A DNA stretch of 64,000 nt from Termitomyces sp. T153 (taxonomy: Eukaryota > Basidiomycota > Agaricomycetes > Agaricales > Lyophyllaceae). The position numbers were made by a program, and so were the translations under genes. Each line of letters begins with the position of its first letter. Within the stretch, counting starts at the first letter, position 1. Of the stretch, positions 961-64,000 are shown piece after piece. The notes under the pieces are model-generated. The model ran no database searches, was not told the origin of the DNA, and saw nothing but the letters and a program-made list of their open reading frames with translations. The DNA is taken from contig JACKQL020000030.1 in the NCBI GenBank assembly GCA_018296165.2, positions 619,003-683,002 of the forward strand. The letters are read 5' to 3'.

Positions 961-1059
961 ATAGAAGTAAGGATGTAGTGATGGAGAAGATGGTGTTCCC
1001 ATGCAGAAATCTAGAGGCATGGATTAAAAAGCATATTTCTAGCAGAAACTTTAGCTAGT

Positions 1060-1316
1060 ATATAAGTGAACCTGCAGATAGAATATTCCCAGTCTAGACA
1101 ATAGCATTGCTTCTGGGTTTATTCACTAGCATAACTGTAAGCTCAGCCAGTGTAGCCTCTTACACTCTGCCTTGCCCTCCACCTTTGCTTCTTGTTGGAT
1201 GGTTGACCTTTGCCTGCTGTGCCTCTGGCCACCCCACTCATTGCTTGCTTCTTAACTGGAGTATTAGGATATGAATGTTGGGCTTGGCTTGGACTATGCA
1301 CAGCTGACATTCCCTT
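1060..1316. repeat. Direct repeat, copy 1 (LTR-like candidate)
   Basis: This segment is repeated in the same orientation at about 2,695-2,956. Shared landmarks are attcccagtct, caatagcattgcttc, tttattcactagcataac, tgccttgccctcca and a common right end at cccttaca. The copies are roughly 80% similar by eye. Two same-orientation copies about 1.6 kb apart could be old LTRs, but no TG start, target duplication or primer site could be fixed. Confidence 0.6.
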
Positions 1317-2129
1317 ACAGGTTGTACAGTTGTCTGGATTCCTATGCAGTGCCCCTTCCTAGCCTGCTGTACTAACTCTACCTTCTACTTGCCCTTGCCA
1401 GGCATAGCTCTACCCTATTACCTTGATACACCACTCTATACACTCCATCCTCCATATCTTAGGCTAGTAGTGTTTCCTCTTGCTCACTGCTCACTTGCTG
1501 CTGCTTTAATGTTGGCCTGTTTGTCATTTGCTTATCAGCTGCTGCCACCTATGGGTCCTTGAGCCATGTTGGCCTTGTCTCTAGCACTAGTTATCCACTT
1601 GCACACCTAGCCTCTGACTTTCAGACACATCCACCTTTTGTCCACTCTGCCACTTGTTCTATGGCTTGCCCCTTGTCTACCACCAGCCTGCTAGTTGCTC
1701 ACTTGTTGCTTGCTGTGGCCTGCCAGTCACCTCTTTATTGGTCAGCTGTTAATTGAATATTCTACTACTGCTACCTCTGTACTATGTGTACAGTGCTTTA
1801 CAACTATAATCAGGCTTAAACCACCACACTCTTTACCCTCAAGCCCTGGCCACTCTCTTGGCCCACCCTACTCTGCTTGGGCTGCTATGCTTGTGCTATT
1901 GAGCAATGTTCTCTACCTGCCAAAAGCTGTGTCTGTTGGGTCAACAGATCTTGAAGGGAGAGTTACATAAGGGGACTAGTCTTTGGGCCATCCCACTCTT
2001 TCCTAGCTTAGTCCATGGGGATTTACACCTCTATCTAGCCAACCTCAGGACTTCCTGGCCCCTTTTTCTTACTCCCTCACCGTCTTGGCTCCCATACCCA
2101 ATGTGTTAGGGGACTGCTCTTAGCAGACC

Positions 2130-2530
2130 CTCTGATTGTTTCCTTGATTCTGAGCCTGCCATTCTTTGTTGGCCTCCCAAACTCTGGTCACAAGTACTTT
2201 CAACCAAGGGCTATTTTTTTTGTCATATTTGTACATAGTCATGTGCCATGAGTCTGAAGATCAAGGCCATTTACAATGAATTTCCACTTTTTGGATTGGA
2301 CTTTGGATTTGGTTGTTGTTGGGTGTGTTTTCCAGAAGCTCTAGAATAGATTTTCCAAACACTGGCATTGGAATCCTTAGACTTGTTCTCTTTGGATCTC
2401 CCTCTGCCAGGTGAGTAGCTAGACCTCTAAAACTTCTTGTAGATGCTGAATAGACTTTTAATCTCCCTCTGCCAGTTGTGTGATTAAGCCACAGCCCCCA
2501 GAAGTTGCCCATACACAATGGGTATATGTA
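2130..2530. repeat. Dispersed repeat, copy 1 (pair at 27.0 kb)
   Basis: About 390 bp that recurs at about 27,000-27,392 in the same orientation. Landmarks in order are ggcctccca, catatttgtaca, cagaagct, cttcttgtagatgctgaat and ctccctctgccagttgtg, ending near gttgccc-taca. The copies share order and spacing but differ at many sites. The copy here is less AT-rich than its partner. Confidence 0.7.
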
Positions 2531-2694
2531 TTGTACCTAGCACATGGTATATTATTGTTGATTATTGATCCTGGTTCTACTGACCCTGATTAGTCAATAG
2601 TTTATAGTCATCAGCCTCTGCTTTGTCATATAGGCTGTAGTCAGTGGCCTCTAGCTTAGTTATAAGTACTTAGTCATTTAGTAGCCTTGTAGTA

Positions 2695-2956
2695 TTTAGG
2701 TGGACCTGGGGATAGCATATTCCCAGTCTGCACAATAGCATTGCTTCCATGTTTATTCACTAGCATAACCATAAGCTTGGCCAGTGCAGCCCCTTGCCTT
2801 CTGCCTTGCCCTCCATCCTTGCCTCTTGTTGGACACTTGCCCCTTGCCTGCCATGCCTCTGGCCAGCCCATTCATTGCTCACCTCTTGACCAGGGCATCA
2901 GGACATGAGTAGTGGGCTTTGCTTGGACTATCCACAGCCCATGTTCCCTTACATTT
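2695..2956. repeat. Direct repeat, copy 2 (LTR-like candidate)
   Basis: Second copy of the repeat at 1,060-1,316, with the same right end (cccttaca). It is followed directly by a C-rich tract. Confidence 0.6.
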
Positions 2957-2959
2957 CCC

Positions 2960-4020
2960 CCCCCCCACATCCATCCATCTTCCCTAGGGTACCATTATTC
3001 TGCTCAACCTTCATGCTGGCCCATCAACAATGCCACAGTACTCAGACCACTACATTGCATCCTCACAGCGCTTAGCCCAATATTCTGATCCACATCACAG
3101 TAATCTTCCTCAGTGGTAAGATACTGTCATTGTGTTGGGAAATGAAATTTTTTAGCCATTTTTTTTCTAGCTCTGTCCCCTGGGCTCATAGCCTTCAAAC
3201 CTTTAGGAAATCTAAATTTACTTATGATCTAGTAAGTAGTGATTTTATAGGGAGATTTATACCATGTGAGAGATGTCAGCCCATGACCAAGTCAGAGGCA
3301 CCAAAAATCCAGGAAGTGAAATTGTTGTCACACCCGGGTCACAGGTCAAGTTCTGGCTTCGCTTGGAAAAACAATGCTCATCGTCGATGTAATCGCTGCC
3401 CGCATGGGGGTATATGTTACAAAAAGCTGAAAAATGTATTACTTGCAGAGACTTTGTCACATGATGTGCGGTGAGATCATTGTGATCTCGATCTTATCTT
3501 ATACATGATTCTAATCACTCGCCGTACTCTATCTAAGCATGTCTACACTGAAAAAGGTGTATTTTCTAACACTACAAAATGTCAAAGATTCAGCAACATC
3601 AAATGATCAGCTAGAATAAATCACTGATCAACATACCCAACATTGCGTAAATGCAAGATTATAGAGACATTCAAAGAATATGGTCTGATGTGATCCAGTG
3701 TAAACGGAGTGGTTGTGAAACTATCTGGGTGACTTTTGATATTATTTAGGTTGAAATTGGCTAAGACTCGCTGGAATCATACCAAATAGTATCATTTGAC
3801 TTGTGTTGGTCTTGAGCTGGTGCCATGGAACTAGATTTGCGAGCCATGCAAGTCATCCAGCAGGAAAGACCGATTGAGGATGATCGATGATTAATGACGT
3901 ATCGCTCATGAATTATTACCCTATTTGATAATGTGCCTGATTACGTAGTTAGTTAGTCCTGATTTTTACCACCAAAAAATAATTTCGACGTCTGATCTTT
4001 TTTTTATTAAGTATCTTCTC
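2960..4020. other. No gene recognised
   Basis: Only short open frames are present and none resembles a known protein. Composition shifts from the CpG-poor repeat DNA on the left to mixed intergenic DNA. Confidence 0.5.
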
Positions 4021-4023
4021 ACC

Positions 4024-4091
4024 ATGAGGCGAGCACAAAGCGTACTAGTACGCCACTACCCCCGCCTATCCCTGGCACTTGGTGCCGATGA
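4024..4091. repeat. Local direct repeat, copy 1
   Basis: Contains atgaggcgagc, then cactacccccgcc, then atccctggcacttggt and ccgatga. The same blocks recur about 110 bp downstream at 4,137-4,191. The copy here has an extra gtactagtac-type insertion. Confidence 0.75.
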
Positions 4092-4136
4092 CTCACGTGA
4101 AGGCGACATTGTTTGGTGACTTGCAATATCTTCTGC

Positions 4137-4191
4137 ATGAGGCGAGCGCACGTCACTACCCCCGCCCATCCCTGGCACTTGGTACCGATGA
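4137..4191. repeat. Local direct repeat, copy 2
   Basis: Second copy of the 4,024-4,091 block, shorter and almost identical over ctacccccgcc and atccctggcacttggt. The region from here to the MATE relic (5,586) holds no recognisable gene. Confidence 0.75.
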
Positions 4192-5585
4192 GAACGACGA
4201 AGCGTGTACCGTTTCTCTTATTGCCATATTATAAATTTCTGAAAGTAACCAACGTCTAAGAACAGCTGCAAACACGGATACAGGTTCTGCAGGCACAAGT
4301 CGCGCAGCGACTATTTTTGCAAACTGTTCAACAGTCAGAAAAGGAATACAGGAATCTTGATCTCTTGTTGCAAGGGACACAAGCGGAGAACGAAAGATGC
4401 ATGGCTGAGCTTGATCGGTGTGTTCCCTGTTCTTCGAATCATTGTAATAACCTTCGTGTTTTCAAGGGTCCGAAAACGCGAGAAGATGATTGAACAGGCG
4501 CTCGCGCGGCTTGCAGGAGAGAATTGGCAGGTTCGGTATTCGATAATTCTTCCAATGTCTCCTTGATAATGAAGAAAATTCCGCTAGTCGTCTCTTTACA
4601 TTGTTCCTGCTATACACAGCACTCCAGCTTTAGCAAGTCCTGCTACGACACGGCGCCCGGCATAGACGGCTTCAAACAACGCAGAAAACGGAGATATGTC
4701 TACGCGTTTGGAGCAGGTCCGCATGTTGATTCTTGGAATGGAGCAGCATCTTCAGATAAGGAAGCAGGAATTAGTGAAGACTACAGAGACGGCCGAAAGC
4801 AAAGCCAGCAGGTTTGGGAAACACCATAAAACGTTAAGTGCTTGAAATCCGGATGTGGTGTTCATTGTATATATTATACCCGGGCTGTACGGTACATGTT
4901 CTTTGTGAGGGTTACTTTCTAATCATGAAAGTCAGGACCTCGGCTCGAATGTGGGCCATGCCTAACATCACATTATTACCATTGTTACATTTCGGTCCGT
5001 TTATTCAACTGTGTTTTGTCGAACCATGGACGTAATTACCGGATAAGTCGAGTCGTGTGGCAGTTGCACCCCTTTACTGAAGTACATGCGAAGCTTAACA
5101 TAGAAAATCCACTCCTTGAATCTGCACTTCAACGTGTCACATTTTCTTGCAAGCAACTGTCTTCCGTTCAAAACCGATCCTATCATGACTAAACAAGAGG
5201 TGTAGCGCTTGACTTCCATTATCTCGGCCCGATAATAGGGGCAAGATCGTTAGTCTTGATAAGTTGATCCATCAGACTCGACTGTGGGTCTCGCAGGACA
5301 TAAAGGGCAGATCTTACGACAAAACTAAGTGAAAATGGTTACTTCCATACAAAATACAATATCCGCGTCGCTGAATGCATGAAATCAACTCCTGGTTACT
5401 TAGCTTCCGAATTTTTTGTTATCCACACAGCATAACACTTACTACATGTATCTGGTCGCTTCGGCACTGGTAGCATTAGCGATTCGATATAAACATTATC
5501 CTGGTCCTGGAGATACGTTGTGGGGCTGCCATTCCCGTCCTCTTGTGATACATCGGCCTCTCCTTGCGCTTCTACTATCTGTATC

Positions 5586-7861
5586 ATGTCCTTATCACAG
5601 GGAGAGCAGAATGAAGGCGAAACAACCCCTCTTCTCCGAGGAGACGAAAACGATTTGTTCACCTCCATGGCAGAGTCGACGTCGACTACGAAGATATTCT
5701 GGGAAGAGCTACGAACGCTTCCTCGATATGTGTGTCCTATACTCGGGTCGGTACCTCTTCTTCTTTTCTTTTGTCCTCAACAACACTTATCTGTTACTCA
5801 ATAGGGCACAGTGGCTGGAGCATAGCATGATTGGAGTAAACCTGATCTCGATCGGTCATTTGTCAACGACTGCCCTCGCTGCGGTCAGTCTTAGCACAAT
5901 GACTGCAAATGTTACTGGTGTCAGTGTGCTCCAGGGGCTTGCTACTGGACTAGACACTATCCTCCCAGCGGCTTTCACATCGCCACAGCCTCAACTTGTC
6001 GGTCTGTGGATACAGCGCATGGGTATTCTTGTCGCTCTTATTATTTTTGGGTCGTTTGATAATCTTCATTAGCTGTCGTAATGATTTGTGCGCTGGTGGT
6101 GTGTTCCCAACCTTCAATCAACTTTTTCGCCGCTAACGAGGCCTCGCATAGCCGGTATTGATTGTCTGGCACAAGATCGAGACAATATTTGTAGCACTGC
6201 AACAAGATCGAGAGGTGTCTCGCTTAGCGGCGTTATACCTACGTTGGTTGTCGTTAGGTCTGCCAGGTTCGTACCCAAGCCTCTCGTCTACTGGTACTTG
6301 GAGTCAATGATCTTTCGTAGCATTGATATTTAACATCATAAGTCGGTGAGTCCCGTATTACTTCTTGATTTTCAAGTTGCTGTCAACCGCGTGTAGTCGC
6401 TACTTCCAATCCCAGCGTGCGCGTCCAATTCTCCTTTGAGGCATTTCTACAAGTAACGCTTTGCTTCAGGACTGTTATCTGTTCAGCCAAAGATAATCTT
6501 GTACGTAGCCCCGATAAATTGTTTGATGAATTATCTTCTAGGTTAGTGATTTGTAACAATTGGTACTTCCTTGCTCAGATACTCTCAGTTTGGGGCCCCC
6601 AACGAATCCGCTTGGGTTTCATTGGCGCTCCTATAGCCACTGTGGCATCATATTACCTTATTTCCATAGTTTCACTCATGTACGGCCGATATCTGGTCCC
6701 AAAAACTGCTTGGCATCCCCTCTCCATGAAGATGTTCTACGATCTAGGGATCATTACGCGTCTTGGTTTGTCGGGTGTTGGTACGTCAAGTGGCTGTTTC
6801 TCTCACACCTATCTGAAAGCCTACAGCTCAGGTGACGTCTACGTGGTGGGCCTGGGAATGTATTGCACTGGCTACATCCTAGTAATTCCAGATACTTCTG
6901 TATCTTTACCCTCTTCCAATGATTCTTCTTAGCTTAGGTCCAACTGCTCTTGCCTGTCAGTCGATCTTGATTTCGTCATCGGGTGTTACTTTCCAAATTT
7001 TGTCCTCGATCGCCGCCGCTACTACGATCCGGTTAGTTCAGCTCCCTCCTGTGGCCTTCACTACTCACACCCTAATAGTGTAGGAAATCTGCTCGGTGAG
7101 AAGAACGTGATTCGTGCAAGTGCTGCAAGTAGAGCAGGGATGGTAGTAGCACTGGTGTCGTCAGGCACCACAAGGTATAGAACCTTGGTGATTCAGTGAC
7201 TTTAGCGACTGAGTGAAGTACGACTGTTATAGCCTAGTGCTTCTTCTAACACGACATACATGGCCAAAGTTGTATAGTGATGACCCAGGTATGTTTCGAA
7301 TGACGATCAAAAGAAACCGATTCCACGCATCATTCCAGCTGTCGTGACCCTCGTTTCCTCTGTGGTTCCAGTGATTGCATTACAGCAATTTCCCACTGGT
7401 CTTGCACAAATGGGCATCGGGCATATGCGAGTGCAAGGCAAACAGGTATATGCACATCTCTCCATTACAAGCATCTATTCTGACTGAATCTGCTCAGTTT
7501 GTTGGTGCGTTGATGAACTTCAGGTAAGATATTCGGAAAAACTTGAAAAGTAGCTGAGGTGAAATAATGCGTTCTCAGTGGGTACTTTTTCTTCGGTAAG
7601 TGTTCGTTTGACGTGCAGGCGATACCTCAACTAAATATCTTTCTAGGTGTACCTATAGGAATATGGCTCGCGTTTCAATGCGATGTCGGCCTTTCCGGGT
7701 TGTGGATTGGGTTGACGATAGGACTGACATTCACTGGTGTGGGTCTGATCATTCCTTGGATGAGGACCGATTGGAGAAAGGAGGTTCTCGAAGTGGCGAA
7801 ACGCAATTCTCGGGAAGAGCAGCGTCGAAAAATGGTCGAATCGACGGAAGATCGGCTATAA
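5586..7861 (+). pseudogene. MATE-family multidrug/toxin efflux transporter pseudogene
   Basis: Pieces of a fungal MATE transporter occur in the right order. An N-terminal exon (5,586-5,750) starts MSLSQGEQNEGETTPLLRG. Then come ISIGHLSTTALAAVS and PQPQLVGLWIQRM, a segment near 6,140-6,240 (EVSRLAALYLRWLSLGLPG), and RIRLGFIGAPIATVASYYL. The last parts are VGNLLGEKNVIRASAASRAG (about 7,080-7,140) and the C-terminal TM pair FQCDVGLSGLWIGLTIG. MATE proteins are 12-TM cation antiporters that export drugs and toxins. The reading frame is lost at least at about 5,810, 6,060-6,420 and 6,780-7,080. The last small introns (about 7,446-7,497, 7,527-7,577, 7,595-7,646) still look perfect and join FVGALMNFS to GYFFFGVPIG. 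The gene probably died recently. Sequencing error at so many sites is unlikely. Confidence 0.8.
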
Positions 7862-11998: not shown

Positions 11999-12002
11999 CT
12001 AG
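11999..12002. repeat. Target-site duplication CTAG (left)
   Basis: CTAG directly precedes the TG of the left LTR and recurs directly after the CA of the right LTR at 22,725-22,728. A 4-bp duplication is short but within the range reported for Ty3/Gypsy elements. Confidence 0.75.
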
Positions 12003-12895
12003 TGATGCAAAAGCTAAAGTTGACTATGGCTCTAAGTTACAAACTTTGGCCAAACATGTCTGACTTAGACTTTGTGAGGTTTTTGAGGTTCTTAATTACA
12101 AGTTCCCACTGTACTAGTAGTCCAAATAATAAATTTATTGATTTTATTTACTTAATTCGAGACGGTTCTCAAAACAAGCCAAGGGGCACAAATAGTGTAT
12201 TATACTAATGATCCTGAAGTAAGTAATGCTCGTAAGCCTAAGAAATCCACTCCCTGGGGACTTCTGAGCCATAGCAATCACTTTCTTGTCCTCACTGCTT
12301 GACCTTTCTTCCCTCTTATACCCCTCCTATCATGCATGGACCTTGCAATGGCATGCTTTATTTGTCATTGTCTAGTTATGTAGTTGGCTGATGGTTGGTC
12401 TGGGCATTGGGGTTCCACATGGGCTGGGCTTGGCAACTTATAGTTACATCCCTCTTTCTTCCCTTCCTCTCCTGCTTGTTTTCTCTCTTCAGCACATGAT
12501 CTTTATCCCTCAAGGGCAGCAAGGCTTATATTATGACTTTGCCAGTGGGATGGCTGCTTTGCACACTCCTCACTGGACCAGGTGTCAGCCTATGGCAAGC
12601 TCAGGCTGCTGCCCAAACTTGGCATTGGCTATGCATTTCTGATCACGCCAAGGTTCCTGGCCTCATTTGTTCCTGGTTGTAACTGGCTTTCTGGTCAAGT
12701 CTTTTGTGGTTTTAATGGGAGGGATACTTTCTGAGGTGCATCCTATGTCTACCATTTTCGATGTTTTGCTATTGGCTTACAGTTTTCAGCCTAGCATAGC
12801 TATATTATGCTATATTATATTATCTATTACAATATATTGCTTTTTCGGACTTTTTGTGTTTCCTCTGGTCTCGTAACCTCAAGCCCATTGTATCA
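12003..12895 (-). repeat. 3' LTR of the Gypsy element (left copy)
   Basis: Starts tgatgcaaaagc and ends cattgtatca. It matches the right copy nearly base for base for about 720 bp. After about 12,735 the two LTRs differ by a cluster of transitions plus a small indel around 12,800-12,830. It retains CpGs (ttcgatg, ttcggac, ctcgtaac) that are lost in the right copy. Confidence 0.95.
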
Positions 12896-12904
12896 CCTCC
12901 CCTA
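12896..12904 (-). promoter_or_regulatory. Polypurine tract for plus-strand DNA priming
   Basis: On the element strand the sequence immediately before the 3' LTR start (TGATAC) is TAGGGGAGG. A purine run abutting the LTR is the usual plus-strand primer of LTR elements. Its position independently supports the LTR boundary. Confidence 0.75.
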
Positions 12905-13142
12905 CACCAACTACTGCCTGCCCTCAGTCAGCTCAGTTACTCCAGTAGGCTTCGCCAAGCCTTGCCCTTGTACTAAAAAAAATCTTTCTCTTTTTCCACA
13001 GAAAAAAAACTTTTTCTAGCCAGGTACAAAAGCCTTTTGTCTTTGCGGTTCTCCCCCCATGGCTCCTTCTGTTAGCATTGTTATCCCTACTGCTCCTTGC
13101 TGAGCCTCTAGACCCCTTGCACCCATTTCTGCTGCTTCTCCC

Positions 13143-14164
13143 ATGTCCACTGACCATTTCACCAACTTCAAATGTGCTATAAAGTGTGATGGTAAACAGG
13201 CTATTGTAGCTATCCTCTAGCTGCCCCTGTTTGCCTCTGCCCTCATTGGCATTTGCAACACTGCCAAAGCTTTTCCAGGATTGGACAGTGACCATACCTG
13301 GTACATTGGTATGACCCGTTTGGTAAGTCTGCCTTCCCCTCATCATCTTCTTTCCTCATGCTTGCTTTAGCACTTTGCCAACAAGTCTGATTATCCCAGA
13401 CTGTTGGAGCAGAAAGGGCTTGTAGACACATTGTCCCAGATCCTACCTATGCTCAACTGCCTCTCCACTGATGATGCCCCTGACATCCAGCATTTCTTCA
13501 CATTTGCTGACACACTCATTCTTATAGACAAGAAGCAGTGTGAGGAACAGCACAAACATGAGATACAGGAGGTCTGTCCTGCTTCTTCCTCTATCCTTTT
13601 CCCTTATCTCTGACTTATTTTAGCAACAGCGCTGTCAGCATGAGGCTCGCAACACTGAGATGCTTGGTTTGACTCCTGTCTGCTCCTCCAAATGGAAGGC
13701 TAACATAAGTTTGCCAGCTTCTCAAGTGGCATTCCTCATGTGGCGCCTCAATCACTTAATACTTCTCTTGCCCCATTTACAGGTGGAACCCGAGGGCAAA
13801 CTCAAACCGAAGAAGGTCAAGGTTACCCCCTCCCTGAGTCAGTCCCTTTGACTGCTTCTTGCCTCGCTTTCCTTAACTCCTGCTTCTAGCTAGCTTCAAG
13901 CTTGGCAGCAATGCTGTGCTTGCTTTGCTGGGTCAGATTTCTGCGGCCCTTGAGAATTGCCTTCTTGATGAGGACAATGCCACCCCACTTGCTGAACTTC
14001 AAAAGCATTGTAAAGCAATTGACTTTGCTGCACAGCAACAACTATATTCTCTCAACCTTGGCCTCCAGACTTTCTGCCATATCTCTGCATGGCTCGAGCA
14101 CTTGGACAAAGTCCTTGGGTCCTCTGAGATTGAGAAGACCAGTTCTCTTCTCAGTGACCTCTGA
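13143..14164 (+). CDS. Spliced opposite-strand gene carried in the Gypsy element, unknown function
   Basis: Between integrase and the 3' LTR lies a gene on the strand opposite to gag-pol. From the ATG at 13,143 a first exon runs to 13,322 with one in-frame TAG (13,218-13,220). A canonical intron (13,323-13,370, gtaagt...ttgctttag) follows, then an exon to 13,571 (starts HFANKSDYPRLLEQ, contains LSTDDAPDIQHFFTFADTL). A second intron is at 13,572-13,623, then a Gln/Glu-rich piece. Later splicing is ambiguous. The last exon (from about 13,890) reads NAVLALLGQISAALE and ends in the TGA at 14,162. The protein is charged and helix-prone. I do not recognise it. The single TAG could be CAG mutated to TAG, so it may be newly dead. 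Confidence 0.55.
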
Positions 14165-14482
14165 GTTTCTCCTGAGATATGTTTTTACTGCTTCTTTATT
14201 TCCTCTTCTGTTTTATTTACCCAGCTTTCCAGGCCCCTGTCCATGATTCTGACATCAAGCTCACTGATTCCCCAGCAGATAGCCCCAAAAATGCCATGGA
14301 TCTATTGTTGGCTACTCCAGTGTAAGCACCAGCTCTGCCTCTGCCTTGCATAGTATAGCCGTACTCTTAGCTATCTCTAAAATCCTTGTATCTCACCACA
14401 AGTGATGTTATTAACCCTGAAACAAAGCATGACTTGAACAAGTTTTCTTTTACTTTTGCTAAGTAAAATTTTTAATTTTTCA

Positions 14483-16180
14483 TCAACCTTTGGAGCTATT
14501 GTCCGACCCATTCCTATCATGATCTAAAGGCTTGTGGAGCCTTATAGAACCAAATGATGGATCTGGCATAGCATTCCCTGTAGGCTTTTGTAGTTCTTCC
14601 CTTAACCCTTTCAACTTTTCTGGAGTGATATCTATCCATTGCTCTAGGCTTTGGGATAGCTCCAAGCATTTCTGAGCTTTGTAAGGAATTACTCTAAAAG
14701 CTGCAACTCTGGTCTGCCAAACTGACCTGTCCAATTCTGCCACAATATAATTACCACCCTTGGTCCTGGCAATTACTACTATGGGACCATGAAAACAGGG
14801 CAGCATTTTAGCACTGTGTGAACTTTCTGTAATCATATTCTTCACCAAGACTAAGTCCAATGGCTTGAATTTGAAGTCTTTGATAGAGTTTTGATGCTCT
14901 TCTGCAAACTTCAAGGCCCATTGGAGTTTGTCCTTCCCAACTCTTTCTCTCATTTCCTCCACATGTTGGTGGTGCTTGGCTAAAGCTCTAGCATGATAAC
15001 CAATTAACTCTTCTGTAGACAATGGCCCTTCTGGTAATTCTATTAACCAGGTAGCCTCTACCAAGTCTAAAGGTAGAGTTGGATGAGCCCCAGTGACCAT
15101 GAAGTATGGTGAACATCCAAATCTCTGCTGGATAGTAATGTGATCACTCCACATTACATGGAAGAAGAACCAAAACCATTTAGTGTGATCCTCACAAGCC
15201 TTGAATAAAGCTTGCCTAACATCCCAATGTGGTCTTTCAATTTTGCCATTAGCTTGAGAGTTGTATGGAGAGATGGCAATGCCCCTGATTCCATATTTAT
15301 TCTCTATCCAAGCTGTGACCTTTTTGAATTGTCCAGCATTATCAGTGATGATCTCTGCAATGCAGCCCCAGCAACAAATCACATCCTCAAACAACCATTG
15401 ACCAATTGTTTTATGGTTTTCCTTGTGCAGAGGCCTCCCTTCTATCCATGAAGACAATGCACACCTACTATGGACAATATACTTGCAGCCATTTGAAGCT
15501 GGAGTCATGTGCATAGTATCAATGTGAATTGTTTGGAAGATAGAGGGTGTATAGGTCACTGTGGGAGCTCTGTTTACAACTGTCTTCTGACATATCTGGC
15601 AGTTGTGGCAAGTCCCAACATACCACTGTACATCTCCATCAATTCCTGGCCACCAAAATTGTTCTTGTACTAACATTTTGGTTGCATAAGTCCCTCTATA
15701 CCCTAAGGCATCATGGGCTGATTTAAGCATGAACATTCACTTATCGATATTGACTACTAGCTTATGCCTAGCCTCATGATTGCATTTATACAGTCTCCCC
15801 TTTTGATCAAAGAAGAACTGCCTTGCAAACCTCTTGAACTTGTCTGGGTCCCAGCCTTTTAAACCTTCAGGTTCTTTGCTTGGGTCTTGTAGCCAGCTTT
15901 GTACAATTGGTAGCAAGTCATCCCACTGTTCACTCTCTCTACCCTTCCTATGTTCTAAGTAGGCTTGTATGTCTGCTTCCTTTTCTTCCTCAGTACCTTC
16001 TGTGGGTAACAGAGGCTGAGAGAGAGATAGTACTGCAACAGGATCTATTCTAGATGTCTGCTGCTGACTTAGAACTGCCTTCCTGAGTTCCATCTCTTGA
16101 GACCTTGCTCTATCAAGTTCTTGTTCAAAGTCTGATACTCCAGTGGCTACTGCATGTAGATAGCCACCTCTAGTGTCAAT
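14483..16180 (-). pseudogene. Pol: integrase region with one in-frame stop
   Basis: Two open segments (15,740-16,180 and 14,483-15,736) are separated only by TGA at 15,737-15,739. Integrase domains in order: a zinc-binding region reading AHDALGYRGTYATK...CHNCQICQ, where the usual second His of HHCC is Tyr. Next is the DDE core, with D in TIHIDTMHM, D in EIITDNAGQF and E in ANGKIERPHWDVRQ. Last is a C-terminal GPY/F-like segment (LPCFHGPIVVIA...VAAFRVIPYK). Integrase inserts the cDNA copy into the genome. No chromodomain follows. The HHCC change and the stop predict a dead protein. Confidence 0.85.
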
Positions 16181-18085
16181 TCAATCTGCAAACTCTTCAA
16201 GTGCTAAGGGTTCCCAATCCTTCCAGCCTGGTTCATTGTTGGTTTTAGCCGGATATTCAAAGTGCATAGTCTTGGGGTTGTCGACCAACTCTGGATTAAC
16301 AGGTGGGTACTCCTCATCTCCTGGCTGCTTGAGCCTCCTAGACAGACCATCCACACTAAAGGTTTTTCCTGGCACATGCCTCAAAGGTGAATGATAGAGT
16401 AGTACATCCTCAATCCATCTCATAATGGTGGCATTGGGTCCTACTCCAGGATTGCTTAGCATTCCCTTCAGATACTTGGCATCTGTCTCCACTACAAGCT
16501 TCCTACAACCAACTAGCCAATACTTATTAGCTTGCAAGGCTCTCATCAAACCATAGAGTTCTCTCTTAGGTTGTGAGAATCTTGCCTCCCTCTCATTCAA
16601 GGTGATGGATCCTAGCTTAGCACAAGTGCATTGCTTAGGATTGTCTGGAGCTTCCTGGAATATTCCAAAGCCCACTGCCATCCAAGAAGTGTCAACTAAT
16701 AAGACCACTGCCCCTCCTGACTCATAGTCAAGTGGTTTCAAAGGTGCACTTTCAGCTAGCAACTTCTTCAACTGAGCCATTGCTGACTGCTGTTCCTCAC
16801 CCCAAACAAATGGTGTGTGGTTTTGAGTCAATTTGTTGATGGGTGCAGCCACTTTAGCATAGTCTTTAATGAACATCCTAAAGGTACCACAAGTACCTAG
16901 AAAAGCTCTGAAATCTGACTTGTCCTGACAATCACCCCACCCCATAACAATAGCCAATCTCTTGGTCTCAGGTTTCTGTCCCTCATAGGAACATCTATGC
17001 CCAACCACTACAATCTCATCTGCACAGACTACTGACTTTTTCCCAGAGAAAGTTCCTCTGGCATATTTGATTCTTTGTAACACTCTGTCTACATTCTGCA
17101 GATGTTCCCATACAAATCTTCTAATGCCTGGGTTTTCTAGGATAACTTCATAGCCCCCATCTGGCAATTCATACCTGTGAGGTGGACCTCTGATTGGCAC
17201 ATCATCAATATATGGCCAAGTTACATGAGGTATCTCATCTTTCAAGATGAAGGTAATGTCATCATGAAAGATTGGTACTGAGTTTGTCCAGCCCATTGGC
17301 AGGGTTACTAGCCTTAGAGCACCAAAGAGTGTCTGAAAGGTGGTATAGTCCCTAGACTTCACATCCAACACTCTCTCATAATATCCCACATACAAGTCAA
17401 AGATCCCTCCACAAGCTCTGCCAGCAAAGTGATTAGCTAATTCTTCAGTTGCTGGTGGCAACCCAGAATGTGCTATGGTCACTTTGTTTAAAGGTTCCAA
17501 GCTGTGAACTATCCTCAAACTCTCACCATCCTTCTTCAATACTGTGAACCACTGGGATCTGTATGAAGAGTTAGATGGCTCATACACTCCTGCCTCAATT
17601 TTCTGCTTTATCATCTGGCAGATTTTATCTCTGAGTCCTGGAGCAATGGGAATGTTCTTCAATACCCAGGGAGTGTGAGGAATTACTGGCATCACTACAG
17701 GAGGGAAGAATTTTTCCTTGAGCCTACCTCTTTGAGAATCATCCCATGCAAAAGCCTCATTCTGCCATCATTAAATGATGTACTGCATTCATCTCCTCTG
17801 GCCATAAGAAACCATCACCATGTGCTTGGTCAATGATCTCCTTGCACTCAGCAGTATACCTCTCTGTGGGTTTGAAATCAGGTGGGTTTGAGTCCAACTG
17901 GGGCATGTCTGCTAGTGGATCCCTAGTGATACACCTTTCAATTCTAAACTCCTCAGGAGAGGTTCTTAGTACAGGTTTCACCTTTCTAGCAACAGGTTTG
18001 TATTTCTTAGAGAAGACTTGTGCAGTTTCCCCCACACCTGCTTCTAACTCTAGGCTTCCCTGCTGTACTAAGATCTCTTCCAACT
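16181..18085 (-). pseudogene. Pol: reverse transcriptase and RNase H
   Basis: The 504-residue open part (16,181-17,695) carries the RT fingers and palm, with FAGRACGGIFDLYVGYYERV at the usual motif A site and WPYIDDVPIRG as the YxDD active site. After that come VVLLVDTSWMAVGFGIFQ and VVETDAKYLKGM of RNase H, and an ending VPGKTFSVDGLSRRL. This copies element RNA into DNA. The frame upstream (17,760-18,085) contains TSPEEFRIERCI and GFLWPEEMNAVHHLM. It is one base out of register with the RT part at about 17,757-17,762. A TGA at 16,181-16,183 separates RNase H from the integrase leader. Confidence 0.9.
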
Positions 18086-18099
18086 TCTCTGGTATCTGA
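18086..18099. repeat. SINE target-site duplication (left)
   Basis: tctctggtatctga, 14 bp, identical to 18,974-18,987. In the pol frame it encodes QIPE on both sides of the insertion. Confidence 0.9.
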
Positions 18100-18973
18100 T
18101 GATGATGATGATGATGATGATTCTTTTTATTTCCTTCAAGTCCTATTTTACACATGACCGGTTTTTGTGTTCTAGGACCCTCAGTACGTAATGGGGGAGG
18201 TTATAATCCCACGCTAAATCCCACTACCATCTGCCGCTAACATGCTGTCCCAATTTCTAAACCCAGCTGTACTCCGCACGGCTTAGTTGGAGTTGATTGG
18301 TGTAGGACTCAGTAGCCCAATCGGCAAGCTCATGCCTTCCTCTAGTCAACCCGCAACCAAGAGTAGTCACGACTCCACCCTTCCCCATGCCCAGATGCTA
18401 CTTTCGGAAGATCGATCCCAAGATTCGGAACCCGCAACGGAATGAGCCAGTGGGCCGCCTATTGGCCCCAGAGGACTGTAGTGACAGACATGCCGCACCT
18501 TTCGGCTAGACACCCGATCAAACCATCAGCCGTGGTCGGGTATTTCCCGGACCACACCGAACCCATCCAATGGACCACACGATATGTTGGCAGCCTGATC
18601 AAACTGTTGACTCCTATCCTCACGCCTACCCGTGCCATGACCCACTTGGTCAGCGAAGGCCTGGACCCTCTCCCAAATCCGTCGCACCGGAGAAACTTTT
18701 ACTTTTTCTGCATCAAGTCACGAGCGTAGTGGTCACCATGCATCATCAAACCACGTGTCTGATTGGTAAGTCCCCTTCGGCCTGCACAACAAAGCCTCCC
18801 TAGTCAGACATGTGCGGGCAGTGGCTTCCTGGCGGCGTTGAAATAACCCACGTGGTGTCTAAGGTGTTTTCCACACAGGTGCACTCAGCCAGAGTCGAAA
18901 CCCCGACCTTGCACTCGCAAGTCACATGACCTGCTTTGGGACACGCTGGTGCCAGCTGAGCCAACGTGCCCCC
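18100..18973 (-). mobile_element. tRNA-derived SINE inserted in Gypsy pol
   Basis: An 874-bp insertion flanked by a perfect 14-bp duplication. On the minus strand its head (from 18,973) has a tRNA-like RNA polymerase III promoter. The A box region is GTTGGCTCAGCTGG (about 18,952-18,965) and the B box region is GGTCGGGGTTTCGACTC (about 18,891-18,907), 40-odd bp apart as in a tRNA gene. The tail at the left is a pure TGA/TCA triplet run of seven units (18,100-18,120). SINEs do not code for protein and move with LINE enzymes. The length is large for a SINE, so a composite is possible. Unlike its host the insert is rich in CpG. Confidence 0.82.
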
Positions 18974-18987
18974 TCTCTGGTATCTGA
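18974..18987. repeat. SINE target-site duplication (right)
   Basis: Second copy of tctctggtatctga, next to the tRNA-like head of the SINE. Confidence 0.9.
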
Positions 18988-20236
18988 CACAGCTGCCCAT
19001 TTAGATAGGCTACTAATGTCTTCTCATCTCTTCCTCCCACATCTCCCTCTGCAGCAAAGGCCTGCAGATACACATCTCTCAACTCCAGGTTCTTGAATCC
19101 ACTATGATTTATAGTGTATCCATTCACCATTACTTCACCATTCTCCTTCTCCCCAATCATCACTGCCACCTCTCCCTGGTCACTGACCAGATCATTGAGA
19201 TTTAAAATTTTGGATCACTATCTCTTCCAACACCTGCCTTTGACACCTTCCCTCTTTGAAAAGTGGGCAGGGCTGTCCGGTGACCAGTATTAGGATCTCT
19301 GATAGTCATGATAGCACTGCCATCTTGAAGGTTTTGTATGTTGCTCTCTGTCAGTGTGTCAAATGGATGACTCAACAAGACAGTATAAGCTGGCTTGATA
19401 AAGATATGCACTTGTAGATAAATGGTGAAGCCTTCAGCAAAAGTAAATGGCACATTTTTGGCTAAACCAACTGATGTATTCACTTGACTGTTGGCACTCT
19501 CCATCCTTAAGCATATGTCTGGATTCCAAGTCAATCCTAAATGAAGTGCCTCATCTAGTGCCATATAGACTATTTGAGAACCACTATCTAGAATTGTCTC
19601 TACTTGTCCCCTCTGGTTGACAATGGGGTTCAAGGATCTCAGCACTTGCAAATCTCTAGCCACATATACCACTACTGGCTTTTCTCCTGGAGGGATATAT
19701 TCCAAGTAAGTGGCTACACAATCCTGATGCACTACTGCACCAGTAGGCAAATCATCCTGTGTTCCATCTGCAATGAAATAAGTTGCCATTGGTAGATCAT
19801 TAACATCTACTTTGTCAGGTGGTTTCTTCTCCCTTACAGTCTGCTGTTGAACTGCTACCCTTGGGATATTGGGATCCCTAGACTGAGTTCCTGATTTGAG
19901 AGTCAATTTTTGTATCATTGCCTCTCTTAATCCAGGAGCCACATCTAACAGTTCTCCAGTACTGAAAGGTACAGTAGCCTCCCAGAGCTTATCAATGGTC
20001 CTATCCTACTCCTTCCTCCTTGTTCCTGTTAAGGAACTTTTAACAGTGTCCTGCACTGGCAAGTCTGGTCCCTCATTGAGGGCTGGAACCTTCTCAAAGG
20101 TAGATCCAGTTTTGTACTGCTCTAGGTGGAATCACCAGAGTTAGCTTTTCTTTCCAGGGTTTTTCAGGGGTTCTTTCTGGCAATGAGGATACTCCTGGTT
20201 GAGATGCCTCTTTCCTAATTGCCTTCATTGAGTTAT
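18988..20236 (-). pseudogene. Pol: aspartic protease region
   Basis: The 19,202-19,942 part contains the retropepsin active-site segment VETILDSGSQIVYMALDEAL (DSG triad) and a downstream VLLSHPFDTLTES segment. The protease would cleave the Gag-Pol polyprotein. Upstream the same frame continues to about 20,110 (PALNEGPDLPVQDTVKSSLT) but is cut by TAG at 20,006-20,008, in a context where CAG would fit. Downstream the frame moves by one base within the aaaatttt run near 19,205 and continues as LNLNDLVSDQGEVAVMIGEK until the SINE. Confidence 0.85.
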
Positions 20237-21709
20237 TTAAAAATCCTTAGAGGAAGATTTCTGTTCCTGAGGACTAGCTGTGTTCCTTGTGTTGATCAAC
20301 ACACTGAGCATCTCAGCCATTTTATTGAAACCTTTCTCCAAGTCTCCTAAGCAGTCTGACTCCTTATATTGAATGTGCCCTAGCATGTCATCTCTTGTGT
20401 CTCTAGCAGAGTTTACATAGGTAGAGTAAGTGACTGTCTCTGGAGGGTCATCTTCTGGCCATCCAAAGTACATATTCACCTGCTTATTATGTACTTGTGC
20501 TAGTCTAGCATGAGGAGATATACCAGCAGGATCTCTGGGTAGAGGAGCACCACTAGGTAGTCTGGCTCTCCCCTCCAACAGGATGATCCATCCTTTTTGT
20601 ACATCTCCCTTGATGACTTCACACTCTGAGATTCTATGTCCAGTTTGCCAACAATAGAAGCAAGTAACACCACTCCTCCCAGAAGTTGGAAATGTAGGAG
20701 GCCCTTCTGCCCTTATACCCTGGCTCCCTTTGGTATTTAAGAAGGTATTGCACATGTCCAACTGACCAGCTTGCAAAGCCTGCATGGTACTCTGGATGCT
20801 CCCCATTTGTTTCCCAATGGTAACCACAGCATCTTGCAGGTGAGCCATTTTCTCCTCCACTTCCTCCTCCTTAATGTTCCCCTTTCTAGTTTCTGTTTTC
20901 TCTATTTTCTCCTCTCTAGGGCTCCTTATAGTAGCACCATCTATCAAGGTCCCCACTACTGTCAGCACTTCTGATAGGTCATACTTGTTGTCCTTGTGCC
21001 TATTTCTAGCAGGGTCTTTGTAGTGGCCATATCTACTGATCAACCTTTCCTCAATCACATCTCCAAAAGCTGGTGTAAAGCACCCCAGGAATTTGTCTAC
21101 CAGAGACCCATTCCTAGTGACATTAGCCAACTTCTTAGCCTCAGCTCTAAATTTCCTTATCAGAGAATGGATTTCTGTAGTGTCATTCCTACTAAGTCTG
21201 GCATGTTCTCTGCAGATTCTGTCCAGGTTTGCAACACTCCCTGTGTCATCCACTGCTTCTGGATAAGACTCCTTGATCTCTTTCTCAAAAGCAGACCAAG
21301 TATAGTTCTCTCCAAAGAAATCAAAGCCTAGCCATTCCTGTTTAGTCTGAGCATCCACATACTCCAAGATTCTCTTTTTCCTTTTTTTATCTCCTTGGAT
21401 CCTAGCATGCTCAAACAGAGAGATCATCCTTTGCAAAAAGCAATGAACCTCAGAGGGCTCAGTATGCTTAAACTTAGGTGCATCCCTGCTGTCAGGCAGT
21501 GGCAGTTTGTATCTGATATTTTGCTCCATTATTGAGGCAGTAGAAACTGATTGAGTAGTAGGGCACAGTTCTTTTAGTGAGCTTGAAATTACTTTCTCAG
21601 TCCAAAGTTTTCTCTTTCTGAGTAAGGTTTCAGGATCAGGCAAAAAGGACTTTGACCCACTGCTATTGGTCCTAGTTTCTCTTTTCCTTAATGTAACAGA
21701 GTTTTTCAC
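20237..21709 (-). CDS. Gag of the Gypsy element (490 aa), intact frame
   Basis: The longest undamaged frame of the element. The N-terminal part is basic. The central part (PSEVHCFLQRMISLFEHAR ... GFDFFGENYTWSAFEKEIK) is of the capsid type. A coiled, charged stretch follows (EEEVEEKMAHLQDAVVTIGK), then one CCHC zinc knuckle, CFYCWQTGHRISEC (CX2CX4HX4C), which binds element RNA. Gag forms the virus-like particle. The frame ends just before the protease region, with pol in another frame. It contains no CpG that I could find over about 1.5 kb. The start is taken at 21,709 (MKNSVTLRKRE) about 130 bp inside the LTR, but a shorter start is possible. Confidence 0.88.
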   Translation of the reverse strand: MKNSVTLRKRETRTNSSGSKSFLPDPETLLRKRKLWTEKVISSSLKELCPTTQSVSTASIMEQNIRYKLPLPDSRDAPKFKHTEPSEVHCFLQRMISLFEHARIQGDKKRKKRILEYVDAQTKQEWLGFDFFGENYTWSAFEKEIKESYPEAVDDTGSVANLDRICREHARLSRNDTTEIHSLIRKFRAEAKKLANVTRNGSLVDKFLGCFTPAFGDVIEERLISRYGHYKDPARNRHKDNKYDLSEVLTVVGTLIDGATIRSPREEKIEKTETRKGNIKEEEVEEKMAHLQDAVVTIGKQMGSIQSTMQALQAGQLDMCNTFLNTKGSQGIRAEGPPTFPTSGRSGVTCFYCWQTGHRISECEVIKGDVQKGWIILLEGRARLPSGAPLPRDPAGISPHARLAQVHNKQVNMYFGWPEDDPPETVTYSTYVNSARDTRDDMLGHIQYKESDCLGDLEKGFNKMAEMLSVLINTRNTASPQEQKSSSKDF

Positions 21710-21821
21710 CTTGGTTGCAATAACTTCAGGTGTTTTGGGCCAAGACCCAGGTAGTGTGAAACTAATGTTTCTGGATTGGACTCCTCATGGAGATCCAAAA
21801 GTGAGTTTTGTATTAAAGAAC

Positions 21822-21839
21822 CCCTCATGGTGGGCTCCA
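21822..21839 (-). promoter_or_regulatory. Candidate tRNA primer-binding site
   Basis: On the element strand the 5' LTR ends in GCATCA, then TC, then TGGAGCCCACCATGAGGG. A TGG two bases inside the LTR, complementary to a tRNA ending in CCA, is the normal layout. The sequence is not the common initiator-Met site. The tRNA was not identified. Confidence 0.5.
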
Positions 21840-21841
21840 GA

Positions 21842-22724
21842 TGATGCAAAAGCTAAAGTTGACTGTGGCTCTAAGTTACAAACTTTGGCCAAACATGTCT
21901 GACTTAGACTTTGTGAGGTTTTTGAGGTTCTTAATTACAAGTTCCCACTGTACTAGTAGTCCAAATAATAAATTTATTGATTTTATTTACTTAATTCGAG
22001 ACGGTTCTCAAAACAAGCCAAGGGGCACAAATAGTGTATTATACTAATGATCCTGAAGTAAGTAATGCTCGTAAGCCTAAGAAATCCACTCCCTGGGGAC
22101 TTCTGAGCCATAGCAATCACTTTCTTGTCCTCACTGCTTGACCTTTCTTCCCTCTTATACCCCTCCTATCATGCATGGACCTTGCAATGGCATGCTTTAT
22201 TTGTCATTGTCTAGTTATGTAGTTGGCTGATGGTTGGTCTGGGCATTGGGGTTCCACATGGGCTGGGCTTGGCAACTTATAGTTACATCCCTCTTTCTTC
22301 CCTTCCTCTCCTGCTTGTTTTCTCTCTTCAGCACATGATCTTTATCCCTCAAGGGCAGCAAGGCTTATATTATGACTTTGCCAGTGGGATGGCTGCTTTG
22401 CACACTCCTCACTGGACCAGGTGTCAGCCTATGGCAAGCTCAGGCTGCTGCCCAAACTTGGCATTGGCTATGCATTTCTGATCACGCCAAGGTTCCTGGC
22501 CTCATTTGTTCCTGGTTGTAACTGGCTTTCTGGTCAAGTCTTTTGTGGTTTTAATGGGAGGGATACTTTCTGAGGTGCGTCCTATGTCTACTATTTTCAA
22601 CATTTTGCTATCAGCTTACAGTTTTCAGCCTAGCATAGCTATATTGTATTATTTATTACAATATATTGCTTTTTTGGACTTTTTGTGTTTCCTCTGGTCT
22701 CATAGCCTTGAGCCCATTGTATCA
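21842..22724 (-). repeat. 5' LTR of the Gypsy element (right copy)
   Basis: 883 bp, tgatgcaaaagc...cattgtatca, near-identical to 12,003-12,895. It carries the element promoter. Differences from the other LTR are almost all transitions and crowd into the last 150 bp; three are CpG in the left LTR and TpG or CpA here. Confidence 0.95.
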
Positions 22725-22728
22725 CTAG
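22725..22728. repeat. Target-site duplication CTAG (right)
   Basis: Matches CTAG at 11,999-12,002. Confidence 0.75.
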
Positions 22729-25965: not shown

Positions 25966-26310
25966 AAAACATATGTGAAATTAATACAAGAAAGCTTGCA
26001 TCTAAAAATTAAGTCTCATAACACTTTCACAGTACATAAAAACTAGTTGTAGGTGCATAAATGTATTATAAAACTAAATAATCAACATGAGTGAGATGAA
26101 ACATACTTATGGATATTAGACATGAGTACATGTTCCAACTTACAAACCACTTTTTAAATGAAGCATTGAACTAAAAAGTTCAGGTTGTACAATAAGTCAG
26201 AGCAAATACAAACTTTAGTGAAAATAAAAAGCATAGATAGAAATTATCAAGAATAAATTTTAAGTCTCTAATTCTTTAACAAGAACTGTAAATCTTATTA
26301 CAGTGATTTT

Positions 26311-26552
26311 ATTCAAGGCCACATAAGTCAATATAGCAAATAAGCATCTATTAAGAAATACAATCTAGCAGCACTAAAACTCAAAGTCCAAGCCCAAAAG
26401 GAGTGGAAAAGAAGAAAAATCATTTATTAATGTTAAAAAATCTAGTGAAAATTTATTATTTTCATTCTAGTACTCTCATCCAGTCAAATTTTAAATGTGT
26501 TACAGGAGGCAGCCTCTGCATCATCTAACTTAGAATCATATAGCAGGAAATT
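26311..26552. repeat. Tandem duplication, copy 1 (about 250 bp)
   Basis: Begins caaggccacataagtcaata and ends near tagcaggaaatta. Copy 2 follows directly at 26,568-26,810. Shared blocks include tagcagcactaaaact, catttattaatgttaaaaa and aaatgtgttacag. Confidence 0.85.
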
Positions 26553-26567
26553 ACATAGTGGAATTCT

Positions 26568-26810
26568 AATCAAGGCCATATAAGTTAACACAGCAGATAA
26601 GCATGTATCAAGAGATACAATATAGCAGCACTAAAACTTAAAGTTCAAGCTCTAAAAAGAGTGAAAAAGAAGAGCAAACATTTATTAATGTTAAAAAGTC
26701 TATAGAAAATTTACAATTTTCATTCCAGTACTTTCATTCAGTTTACTTTTAAATGTGTTACAGAAGATAGCCTCTGCATTGTCCAACTTAAAATCATATG
26801 ACAGGAAATT
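26568..26810. repeat. Tandem duplication, copy 2 (about 250 bp)
   Basis: Second copy of 26,311-26,552, in the same orientation, roughly 85% similar by eye. Its right end (cttaaaatcatatgacagg) also forms one arm type of the inverted repeat at 27,386-27,455. Confidence 0.85.
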
Positions 26811-61360: not shown

Positions 61361-61398
61361 TGCTCAAAGTTGTAGCTTCTCAAAAGCTACAAACGAAA

Positions 61399-63701: not shown

Positions 63702-63708
63702 TATAAAA
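63702..63708 (+). promoter_or_regulatory. TATA box of esterase 2
   Basis: TATAAAA, 44 bp before the ATG at 63,752, in the same context as the box of the first esterase. Confidence 0.6.
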
Positions 63709-63751
63709 TGTTAAAGTCTTGGACAGGAGTCGTGACCCACCACCACAGAAA

Positions 63752-64000
63752 ATGTTCATTCGCTCTCTTCTCACGTTCTTGACGGTTGCTGCGCTCAGTG
63801 TACTGAGCAATGCCGCTGCTGGCCAACTACAGCAGATTTCCAACTTCGGCTCAAACCCGACCAATGTCGGAATATATCTCTACCGCCCTTCGAATGTTGC
63901 AGCTTCTCCTCCTCTCATCGTCGCGATGCACTATTGCGGTGGAACGGCTCAGGCTTACTTCACGGGCACCCAATACGCCAACCTTGCTGATCAGCATGGC
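63752..64000 (+). CDS. Second secreted esterase, cut by the window end
   Basis: The first 83 codons are present (signal peptide MFIRSLLTFLTVAALSVLSN). They are nearly identical in protein to the start of the gene at 61,399, including NFGSNPTNVGIYLYRPSNVA and LIVAMHYCGGTAQAYFTGTQ. The nucleotide sequences differ mostly at third positions, so this is an older tandem duplicate and not an assembly repeat. The nucleophile Ser and the His lie beyond the window. Confidence 0.88.
   Translation, partial: MFIRSLLTFLTVAALSVLSNAAAGQLQQISNFGSNPTNVGIYLYRPSNVAASPPLIVAMHYCGGTAQAYFTGTQYANLADQHG

What the first reader, a model, noticed from the sequence alone, without database searches (positions are those of the whole stretch)
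13143..14164. Gypsy element carries a spliced gene on the opposite strand
Directly seen: between integrase and the 3' LTR, opposite to gag-pol, lies a coding segment with two textbook fungal introns (13,323-13,370 and 13,572-13,623) that keep frame. Extra genes in this slot are known in some LTR elements, but they are usually envelope-like or sense-oriented. Introns on the opposite strand would survive retrotransposition, because they are not spliced from the genomic RNA. That gives an element a way to carry an intron-containing host gene. The protein is unrecognised and is a good candidate for a captured host gene or an element control factor.
Basis: partly seen in the sequence, partly recalled or inferred. 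Interest (0 to 1): 0.75.

Follow-up and report, generated by a model that had tools for sequence, protein, structure and literature searches.

The report
Spliced antisense gene inside fungal retrotransposon
A family of jumping genes in termite-farmed fungi carries, on its opposite strand, an extra six-exon gene whose introns survive copying through RNA, and this gene and the element's end repeats seem to be traded between elements as one unit, which suggests a control module.

Summary
The window lies in a Termitomyces-like fungus. The Gypsy element is real (12,003-22,724, with LTRs and a CTAG duplication). Between integrase and 3' LTR, antisense to gag-pol, lies a real gene, larger than reported: six exons, five introns (13,059-14,325). 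The window copy is dead (three stops, two lost donors). In 33 copies the five introns recur at the same residues and phases (25-33 of 33 each); exons evolve under purifying selection; a hand-spliced relative matches an annotated Termitomyces protein at 99% over 322 residues. Of 100 integrase loci 63 have the gene behind them, 63 of 63 antisense. Homologs found: Termitomyces and Tephrocybe only. Beyond the finding: integrase and RT are mostly 90-99% identical between elements whose antisense genes are synonymously saturated; the break is sharp at the end of integrase, and the LTR goes broadly with the gene, so both form an exchangeable module. Gene-deleted copies have multiplied (11 and 3 loci), so the gene is not needed in cis. 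Best reading: a trans-acting, probably nuclear regulator of its LTR. Transcription, splicing and function are unproven. Antisense extra genes are known (Grande, Retand, Boty); this is a new variant.

The parts
12003..12895 (-). 3' LTR of the Gypsy element (TGATGC...TATCA, 893 bp); 868 of 883 aligned bases equal the other LTR, 15 of 15 substitutions are transitions
11999..12002 (.). target-site duplication, left (CTAG)
   Evidence: flank letters
22725..22728 (.). target-site duplication, right (CTAG)
   Evidence: flank letters
21842..22724 (-). 5' LTR (883 bp); a PBS-like TGG lies two bases inside
20237..21784 (-). gag-like ORF (515 aa) with a CCHC-type zinc knuckle seen by eye (motif recalled; no Pfam hit)
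19202..20005 (-). protease-region ORF (Asp_protease_2, E 0.0034, below cut-off)
16181..17767 (-). RT-RNase H ORF (RNase H domains by Pfam; RT assigned by position only)
14483..15736 (-). integrase ORF (Integrase_H2C2)
13059..14325 (+). antisense gene, six exons, pseudogene in this copy
13059..13322 (+). exon 1 (in-frame TGA 13101, TAG 13218 in this copy)
13323..13370 (+). intron 1, phase 0, GTAAGT..TTTAG
13371..13571 (+). exon 2
13572..13623 (+). intron 2, phase 0, GTCTGT..TTTAG
13624..13704 (+). exon 3
13705..13782 (+). intron 3, phase 0; donor lost in this copy, present in L004 and L006-L008
13783..13837 (+). exon 4 (basic KLKPKKVKV block)
13838..13889 (+). intron 4, phase 1, slot found in 33 of 33 copies
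13890..14176 (+). exon 5 (well conserved helical region; in-frame TGA 14162 in this copy)
14177..14232 (+). intron 5, phase 0; donor lost in this copy
14233..14325 (+). exon 6, acidic tail, stop TAA 14323-14325
12896..13058 (+). 163 bp between LTR and ATG: PPT-like purine run and the likely site or neighbour of an antisense promoter (inferred)

Best explanation
SHOWN BY SEQUENCE: a Ty3/Gypsy clade of Termitomyces (with protein homologs in Tephrocybe) carries a six-exon protein gene antisense to gag-pol between integrase and 3' LTR. It is inherited as part of the element, is under purifying selection across lineages, and together with the LTR forms a module that has been exchanged relative to closely similar pol backbones. 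[quoted passage not shown] because its introns are on the strand opposite to the genomic RNA they are not removed from it and survive each round. The roughly 325-residue protein (helical N-terminal domain, long helix, basic block, acidic tail) enters the nucleus and acts in trans on LTRs of its own kind, most likely as a transcription or silencing-control factor. Exchange would occur by template switching near the end of integrase between co-packaged RNAs, which moves the gene and adjacent LTR together. Confidence by step: real antisense gene with introns that belongs to the element 0.93; modular exchange 0.85; trans-acting LTR regulator 0.4.
For: Seven further near-full DNA copies of the reported segment, all in the same slot. 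Five introns at the same residue and phase in 29, 25, 26, 33 and 27 of 33 copies; 9 of 33 with no stop or frameshift over the aligned part; intron lengths in all mod-3 classes. dN/dS 0.12 and 0.09 for L016 v L012 and L014 (dS above 2, so rough), differences 28/18/55% at codon positions 1/2/3 (L016 v L012); 0.91 between near-identical L016 and L018. 63 of 100 integrase loci have the gene 3' of integrase, 63 of 63 antisense. Hand-spliced L053 protein v annotated P0062: 99% over 322 of 322. Module: between types the antisense gene has pS 0.67-0.84 while integrase of the same pairs has mostly 0.12-0.28 (higher with L009 and L013, saturated with L053); L054 v L055 93-99% identical in integrase but 48-67% in the gene, with no BLAST match over most of the U3 side; integrase data reject the gene's tree (dlnL 254) and the reverse (1,537) in 27 loci. 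Basic block KPKKVKV or KKPRL in most Termitomyces rows. Deleted copies keep an LTR like that of gene-bearing relatives.
Against: No RNA or protein data. Gene-deleted elements have multiplied (3 and 11 loci), so the gene is not needed in cis. LTR linkage may reflect adjacency alone; and it is loose between types A and B: the LTR of L056 (type B) is nearer to type-A LTRs (84-86%) than to type-B L014 (80%). No repeated motif in 7 of 8 LTR regions. No convincing fold or family. Basic block weak in Tephrocybe. 26 of 51 proteins of 280 aa or more have a 19-residue window with hydropathy of at least 1.6, so a membrane helix is not excluded. The 33-copy tally uses a query whose introns a gene finder placed, counts residue and phase and not the ancestral donor, and in L060 the CT-AC control scored higher.
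Confidence: 0.6

Rival explanations
1. Captured host gene carried as cargo: the element took up an intron-containing host gene in antisense orientation, and it is not part of the element's own biology.
For: Intron-rich structure is like a host gene; antisense capture would preserve introns; the protein hits are limited to Termitomyces and Tephrocybe.
Against: 63 of 63 copies placed beside integrase have the same slot and strand; constraint together with saturated divergence means long residence; no host relative identified. 45 of 99 gene clusters had no integrase in the truncated list, so a host copy is not excluded.
Confidence: 0.12
2. The protein works in the replication cycle itself (particle, nuclear import of the integration complex, or an envelope-like role) and the LTR linkage is only adjacency.
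For: Same slot as env in retroviruses; hydrophobic windows in 26 of 51 proteins; the basic block could serve import.
Against: Gene-deleted copies have multiplied, unless complemented in trans; divergent gene types sit behind closely similar integrases, which a particle or integrase partner should not allow easily; no envelope family by Pfam.
Confidence: 0.2
3. Only the antisense RNA matters (double-stranded RNA control of gag-pol); the reading frame is a by-product.
For: Convergent with pol, 3' ends about 157 bp apart; antisense RNA control is proposed for plant elements (PMC7264820, part 2).
Against: Codon-position pattern, dN/dS near 0.1 between types, frame kept at about 30-40% protein identity.
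Confidence: 0.06
4. No exchange: the antisense gene and LTR simply mutate or evolve far faster than gag-pol.
For: Within a type the gene is mostly somewhat more diverged than integrase (L055 v L057: 0.82-0.94 v 0.96-1.00; L014 v L017 pS 0.184 v 0.075).
Against: Distances are not monotonic: with integrase about equally close, the gene is about 90% identical in L055 v L057 and about 60% in L054 v L055; the window group v L009 has nearly equal pS in gene and integrase (0.52-0.56 v 0.46-0.52); L015 has a type-B gene but integrase nearer to type-A L018 (pS 0.128) than to type-B L014 (0.174); both topologies rejected.
Confidence: 0.1

Closest known systems
Antisense additional ORFs (aORF-3R) of plant Gypsy elements: Grande gene23, RIRE2, Retand (TRP28)
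   Same: Same slot (between pol and 3' LTR), same strand, present in many copies of a family, function unknown; gene23 is reported nuclear with its own promoter (PMC7264820 parts 1-2; PMC11963269 passages).
   Different: Here six exons with five conserved introns (a search of the Retand paper's main text found no word beginning with 'intron'); basidiomycete; no TRP28 hit; exchange of gene plus LTR relative to pol.
Boty / BcGypsy1 brtn in Botrytis and Sclerotinia
   Same: Fungal Gypsy element with an additional antisense gene, named in PMC7264820 and PMC8365987 (passages).
   Different: Ascomycete. The brtn paper (Zhao 2011) was not seen; homology to brtn and introns of brtn not tested.
HTLV-1 HBZ and APH-2 antisense genes
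   Same: Antisense gene transcribed from the 3' LTR, spliced, product a nuclear regulator of transcription (PMC1459196 abstract; PMC10186651 passages). Works-like analogy only.
   Different: No bZIP found by Pfam; different hosts; many more introns; no transcript shown here.
VANC anti-silencing proteins of VANDAL transposons
   Same: Accessory protein and the element's own noncoding DNA diverge together (PMC5735166 passages).
   Different: VANDALs are DNA transposons (recalled); VANC targets are tandemly repeated motifs, which were not found in 7 of 8 LTR regions here.

Membership tests
Ty3/Gypsy LTR retrotransposon | Two LTRs, TG..CA, with target-site duplication | tested here: met
   893 and 883 bp, 98.3% identical, CTAG on both sides
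Ty3/Gypsy LTR retrotransposon | RNase H before integrase in pol order | tested here: met
   Pfam RNase H domains in 16,181-17,767, Integrase_H2C2 in 14,483-15,736, minus strand
Ty3/Gypsy LTR retrotransposon | gag, protease and RT domains | tested here: inconclusive
   No Pfam hit for gag or RT, protease below cut-off; assigned by position and recalled motifs
Antisense additional ORF (aORF-3R) | Between pol and 3' LTR, antisense | tested here: met
   63 of 63 placed copies
Antisense additional ORF (aORF-3R) | Present in most copies of the family | tested here: met
   63 of 100 integrase loci; 12 with deletion junction, 6 at contig ends, 19 undecided. Between types it is conserved much less than integrase
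Antisense additional ORF (aORF-3R) | Own antisense transcript | not testable with these tools
Retand TRP28 protein (PF04195) | TRP28 domain | tested here: not met
   Not among Pfam hits of 12 members at E<=1 nor of 6 proteins at E<=0.5
Boty brtn | Sequence homology to brtn | not tested
   brtn sequence and paper not seen; no Botrytis protein among the listed hits
HBZ-like bZIP factor | bZIP domain | tested here: not met
   No bZIP among Pfam hits
VANC-type anti-silencing system | Repeated target motif in own noncoding DNA | tested here: not met
   7 of 8 LTR plus leader regions without 7-9-mers above shuffles; only the L053 type has an ATGAATGGAA array (simple block shuffle)
Captured host gene | Relative of the gene at a host locus outside the element | tested here: inconclusive
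   None identified; gene lists truncated and one fungal genome held
Envelope-like protein | Transmembrane segment | tested here: inconclusive
   Hydropathy windows only
Known fold | Structural match over a domain | tested here: inconclusive

The most novel reading that the evidence does not exclude
The LTR and the antisense gene are a matched specificity module: each gene type encodes a nuclear factor that recognises LTRs of its own kind, and elements swap this module between shared gag-pol engines much as phages swap immunity regions. Many types are kept in one genome because a new type escapes silencing or interference aimed at the common ones, while gene-deleted copies live off the factor made by their LTR relatives. 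(Probability lowered from 0.28 to 0.25 on re-check, because LTR and gene do not sort cleanly between types A and B.)
Probability: 0.25. Interest if true: 0.87.

Novelty: new variant of a known kind. Interest (0 to 1): 0.68.

Why it matters
Antisense extra genes of LTR retrotransposons have been described since the late 1990s without a determined function, and a review asks for a look at antisense and spliced transcripts (PMC7264820). This family gives what is needed to test them: a conserved, multi-intron antisense gene; several types behind closely similar pol genes; and natural gene-deleted copies with related LTRs as controls. It also shows that antisense orientation lets a retroelement keep five introns over long divergence, and that the control end and the engine of an element can evolve as separate modules.

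Full report
WHERE IT IS. The window is part of a 72.4-Mb assembly in 307 contigs. The fungus is Termitomyces or very close: 12 of 12, 57 of 57 and 19 of 22 protein hits of three searches are Termitomyces, the other 3 Tephrocybe rancida, also Lyophyllaceae. The element spans 12,003-22,724 with CTAG on both sides; LTRs of 893 and 883 bp differ at 15 of 883 aligned bases, all transitions. Differences among copies are largely of the CG to TG/CA kind (seen by eye). Gag-like, protease, RT-RNase H and integrase ORFs lie on the minus strand.

THE GENE. The reported segment has seven further near-full DNA copies, 82-91% identical, all in the same slot. Aligning them showed the true limits. A splice-aware protein-to-DNA alignment with an annotated Termitomyces protein (P0014) placed five introns at residues 89, 156, 183, 201 and 298 with phases 0, 0, 0, 1, 0. 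Over 33 loci these exact slots were found in 29, 25, 26, 33 and 27; a slot hit means residue and phase, and in some decayed copies another nearby GT was used. Replacing GT-AG by CT-AC, GA-AC or TG-GA lowered the score in 23 of 23 loci; GA-AC and TG-GA in 10 of 10 and CT-AC in 9 of 10 (L060: 566 v 579). Intron lengths fall in all three mod-3 classes at each slot; 9 of 33 loci have neither stop nor frameshift over the aligned part. The frame in those copies makes sense only if the introns are spliced. That is inference; no RNA was available.

AN INDEPENDENT CHECK. One group of 22 integrase loci is only 65-74% identical to the window's. The stretch behind one of these (L053) holds the gene at about 29-36% identity with matching introns. 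I spliced it by hand to 322 residues; the next search returned P0062 of Termitomyces Mn162, 322 residues, 99% identical over the whole query.

IT BELONGS TO THE ELEMENT. Of 100 integrase loci (2 fragment rows dropped), 54 had the gene within 2.5 kb downstream by the lists, 9 more: 63, all antisense, none in sense. Of the other 37, 12 carry a deletion junction (matched by eye), 6 run off a contig end, 19 are undecided because match lists are truncated. Conversely 45 of 99 gene clusters had no integrase in the list, for the same reason or because of decay or loss.

SELECTION. Between types differences pile up at third codon positions (L016 v L012: 28, 18, 55%) and dN/dS is about 0.1 with dS near saturation (for many other pairs dS could not be computed); within type B (L012-L015, L017) 0.27-0.52; between near-identical copies L016 and L018 0.91, as expected of copies that drift after insertion.

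THE SURPRISE: A MODULE. Between types the antisense gene has pS 0.67-0.84, while integrase of the same pairs has mostly 0.12-0.28 and RT 0.09-0.21; pairs with L009 or L013 have higher integrase pS (0.32-0.66), and L053 is saturated in both. Within types gene and integrase are closer to each other (for example L014 v L015 0.149 and 0.174; window group v L009 0.52-0.56 and 0.46-0.52). Identity profiles fall from mostly 0.9 or more in integrase and RT to about 0.5-0.7 in the gene within 150-400 bp at the end of integrase. Clearest pair: L054 and L055, integrase bins 0.93-0.99, gene bins 0.48-0.67. On the other side, the LTR goes broadly with the gene: L054-L019 986 bp at 92%, L055-L057 1,044 bp at 84%, but L054-L055 only 344 bp at 72% plus two 50-bp blocks, and window v others at most 145 bp per piece. 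This sorting is loose between the sister types A and B: L056 (B) is 84-86% to type-A LTRs and 80% to type-B L014. In the integrase tree one clade (support 98) joins genes of three types: L018, L019, L020, L054; L015; L055, L057, L058, L059. Each data set rejects the other's topology (dlnL 254 for integrase data, AU 0.0003 with a program warning of too few replicates; 1,537 for gene data; 27 loci). A faster clock does not explain non-monotonic distances. Gag was not compared; one 777-bp protease-region piece of window and L019 is 96% identical. Template switching in reverse transcription at one point next to integrase would move gene and U3 together (from general retrovirus knowledge, not tested).

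NOT NEEDED IN CIS. L068 and L069, behind open integrase ORFs, retain only about the first 23 and 16 codons. Their junctions recur in full at 3 loci (99-100%) and 11 loci (88-100%), own locus included. These elements have therefore multiplied without the gene, while keeping an LTR like that of gene-bearing relatives (L068 91.5% to L065; L069 93-96% to L053). The L069 junction again joins a well-matching LTR side to an integrase end only 80% like that of L053 (70 bp). Such copies could use a factor made elsewhere, or the factor may be a brake; both fit.

THE PROTEIN. No hit above a curated cut-off in Pfam or NCBIfam and none of weight in PDB sequences. AlphaFold gave a helical N-terminal domain with a long helix (model 2, residues 12-165, mostly above 90), a poor linker and a helical C-terminal part; no meaningful fold match. 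A basic block (KPKPKKVKV or KKPRL) is kept in most Termitomyces rows and weak in Tephrocybe; the tail of several types is acidic.

COMPARISON. Antisense extra ORFs in this slot are known in Grande, RIRE2, Retand, PvRetro13 and fungal Boty, function undetermined (PMC7264820, parts 1-2 of 3 read; PMC11963269 passages; PMC8365987 passages). Spliced antisense genes with transcription-regulating products exist in HTLV (PMC1459196 abstract; PMC10186651 passages). In bdelloid rotifers extra ORF3s are expressed from spliced messages (PMC5408684 passages). New here, as far as the searches listed under Tried and rejected reach, are the five conserved introns in an antisense gene of a basidiomycete Gypsy family and the exchange of gene plus LTR.

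WHAT IS UNKNOWN. Transcription, splicing, protein location, function, origin. A VANC-like prediction of repeated target motifs failed in 7 of 8 LTR regions.

Noticed in passing
window 5404-7861 (+): Probably an intron-containing gene; its first ORF piece matches the MatE transporter family (E 1.1e-6); two later pieces gave no hit.
   Followed up: partly
L010 (G000:C11:366000-375500), about 3188-5739 with the gene on +: LTR, antisense gene and a partial LTR repeat (271 bp, 82.7%) with no gag-pol between: an element reduced to LTR plus antisense gene.
   Followed up: partly
L068 and L069; G000 C133, C25, C8 and C120, C41, C1 (two), C48, C44, C2, C8, C137, C254, C225: Elements with the antisense gene deleted at a shared junction have multiplied.
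   Followed up: yes
L053, + coordinates about 2450-3001: LTR side of the sister group carries an ATGAATGGAA-like tandem array, not found in the other seven LTR regions compared.
   Followed up: partly
window 1056-2953, 26306-26810, 61395-64000: Further pairs of direct repeats (81-84% identical), nature unknown.
   Followed up: no
L054, antisense gene around residue 89: No intron 1 found at its slot in this copy, one frameshift in the alignment instead; possible intron loss or local damage.
   Followed up: no
L056 v L054, first 150 bp of the antisense gene and the LTR: A type-B gene whose 5' end (85%) and LTR (84%) are nearer to type A than the rest of the gene (61-73%): possible second breakpoint inside the module.
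   Followed up: no
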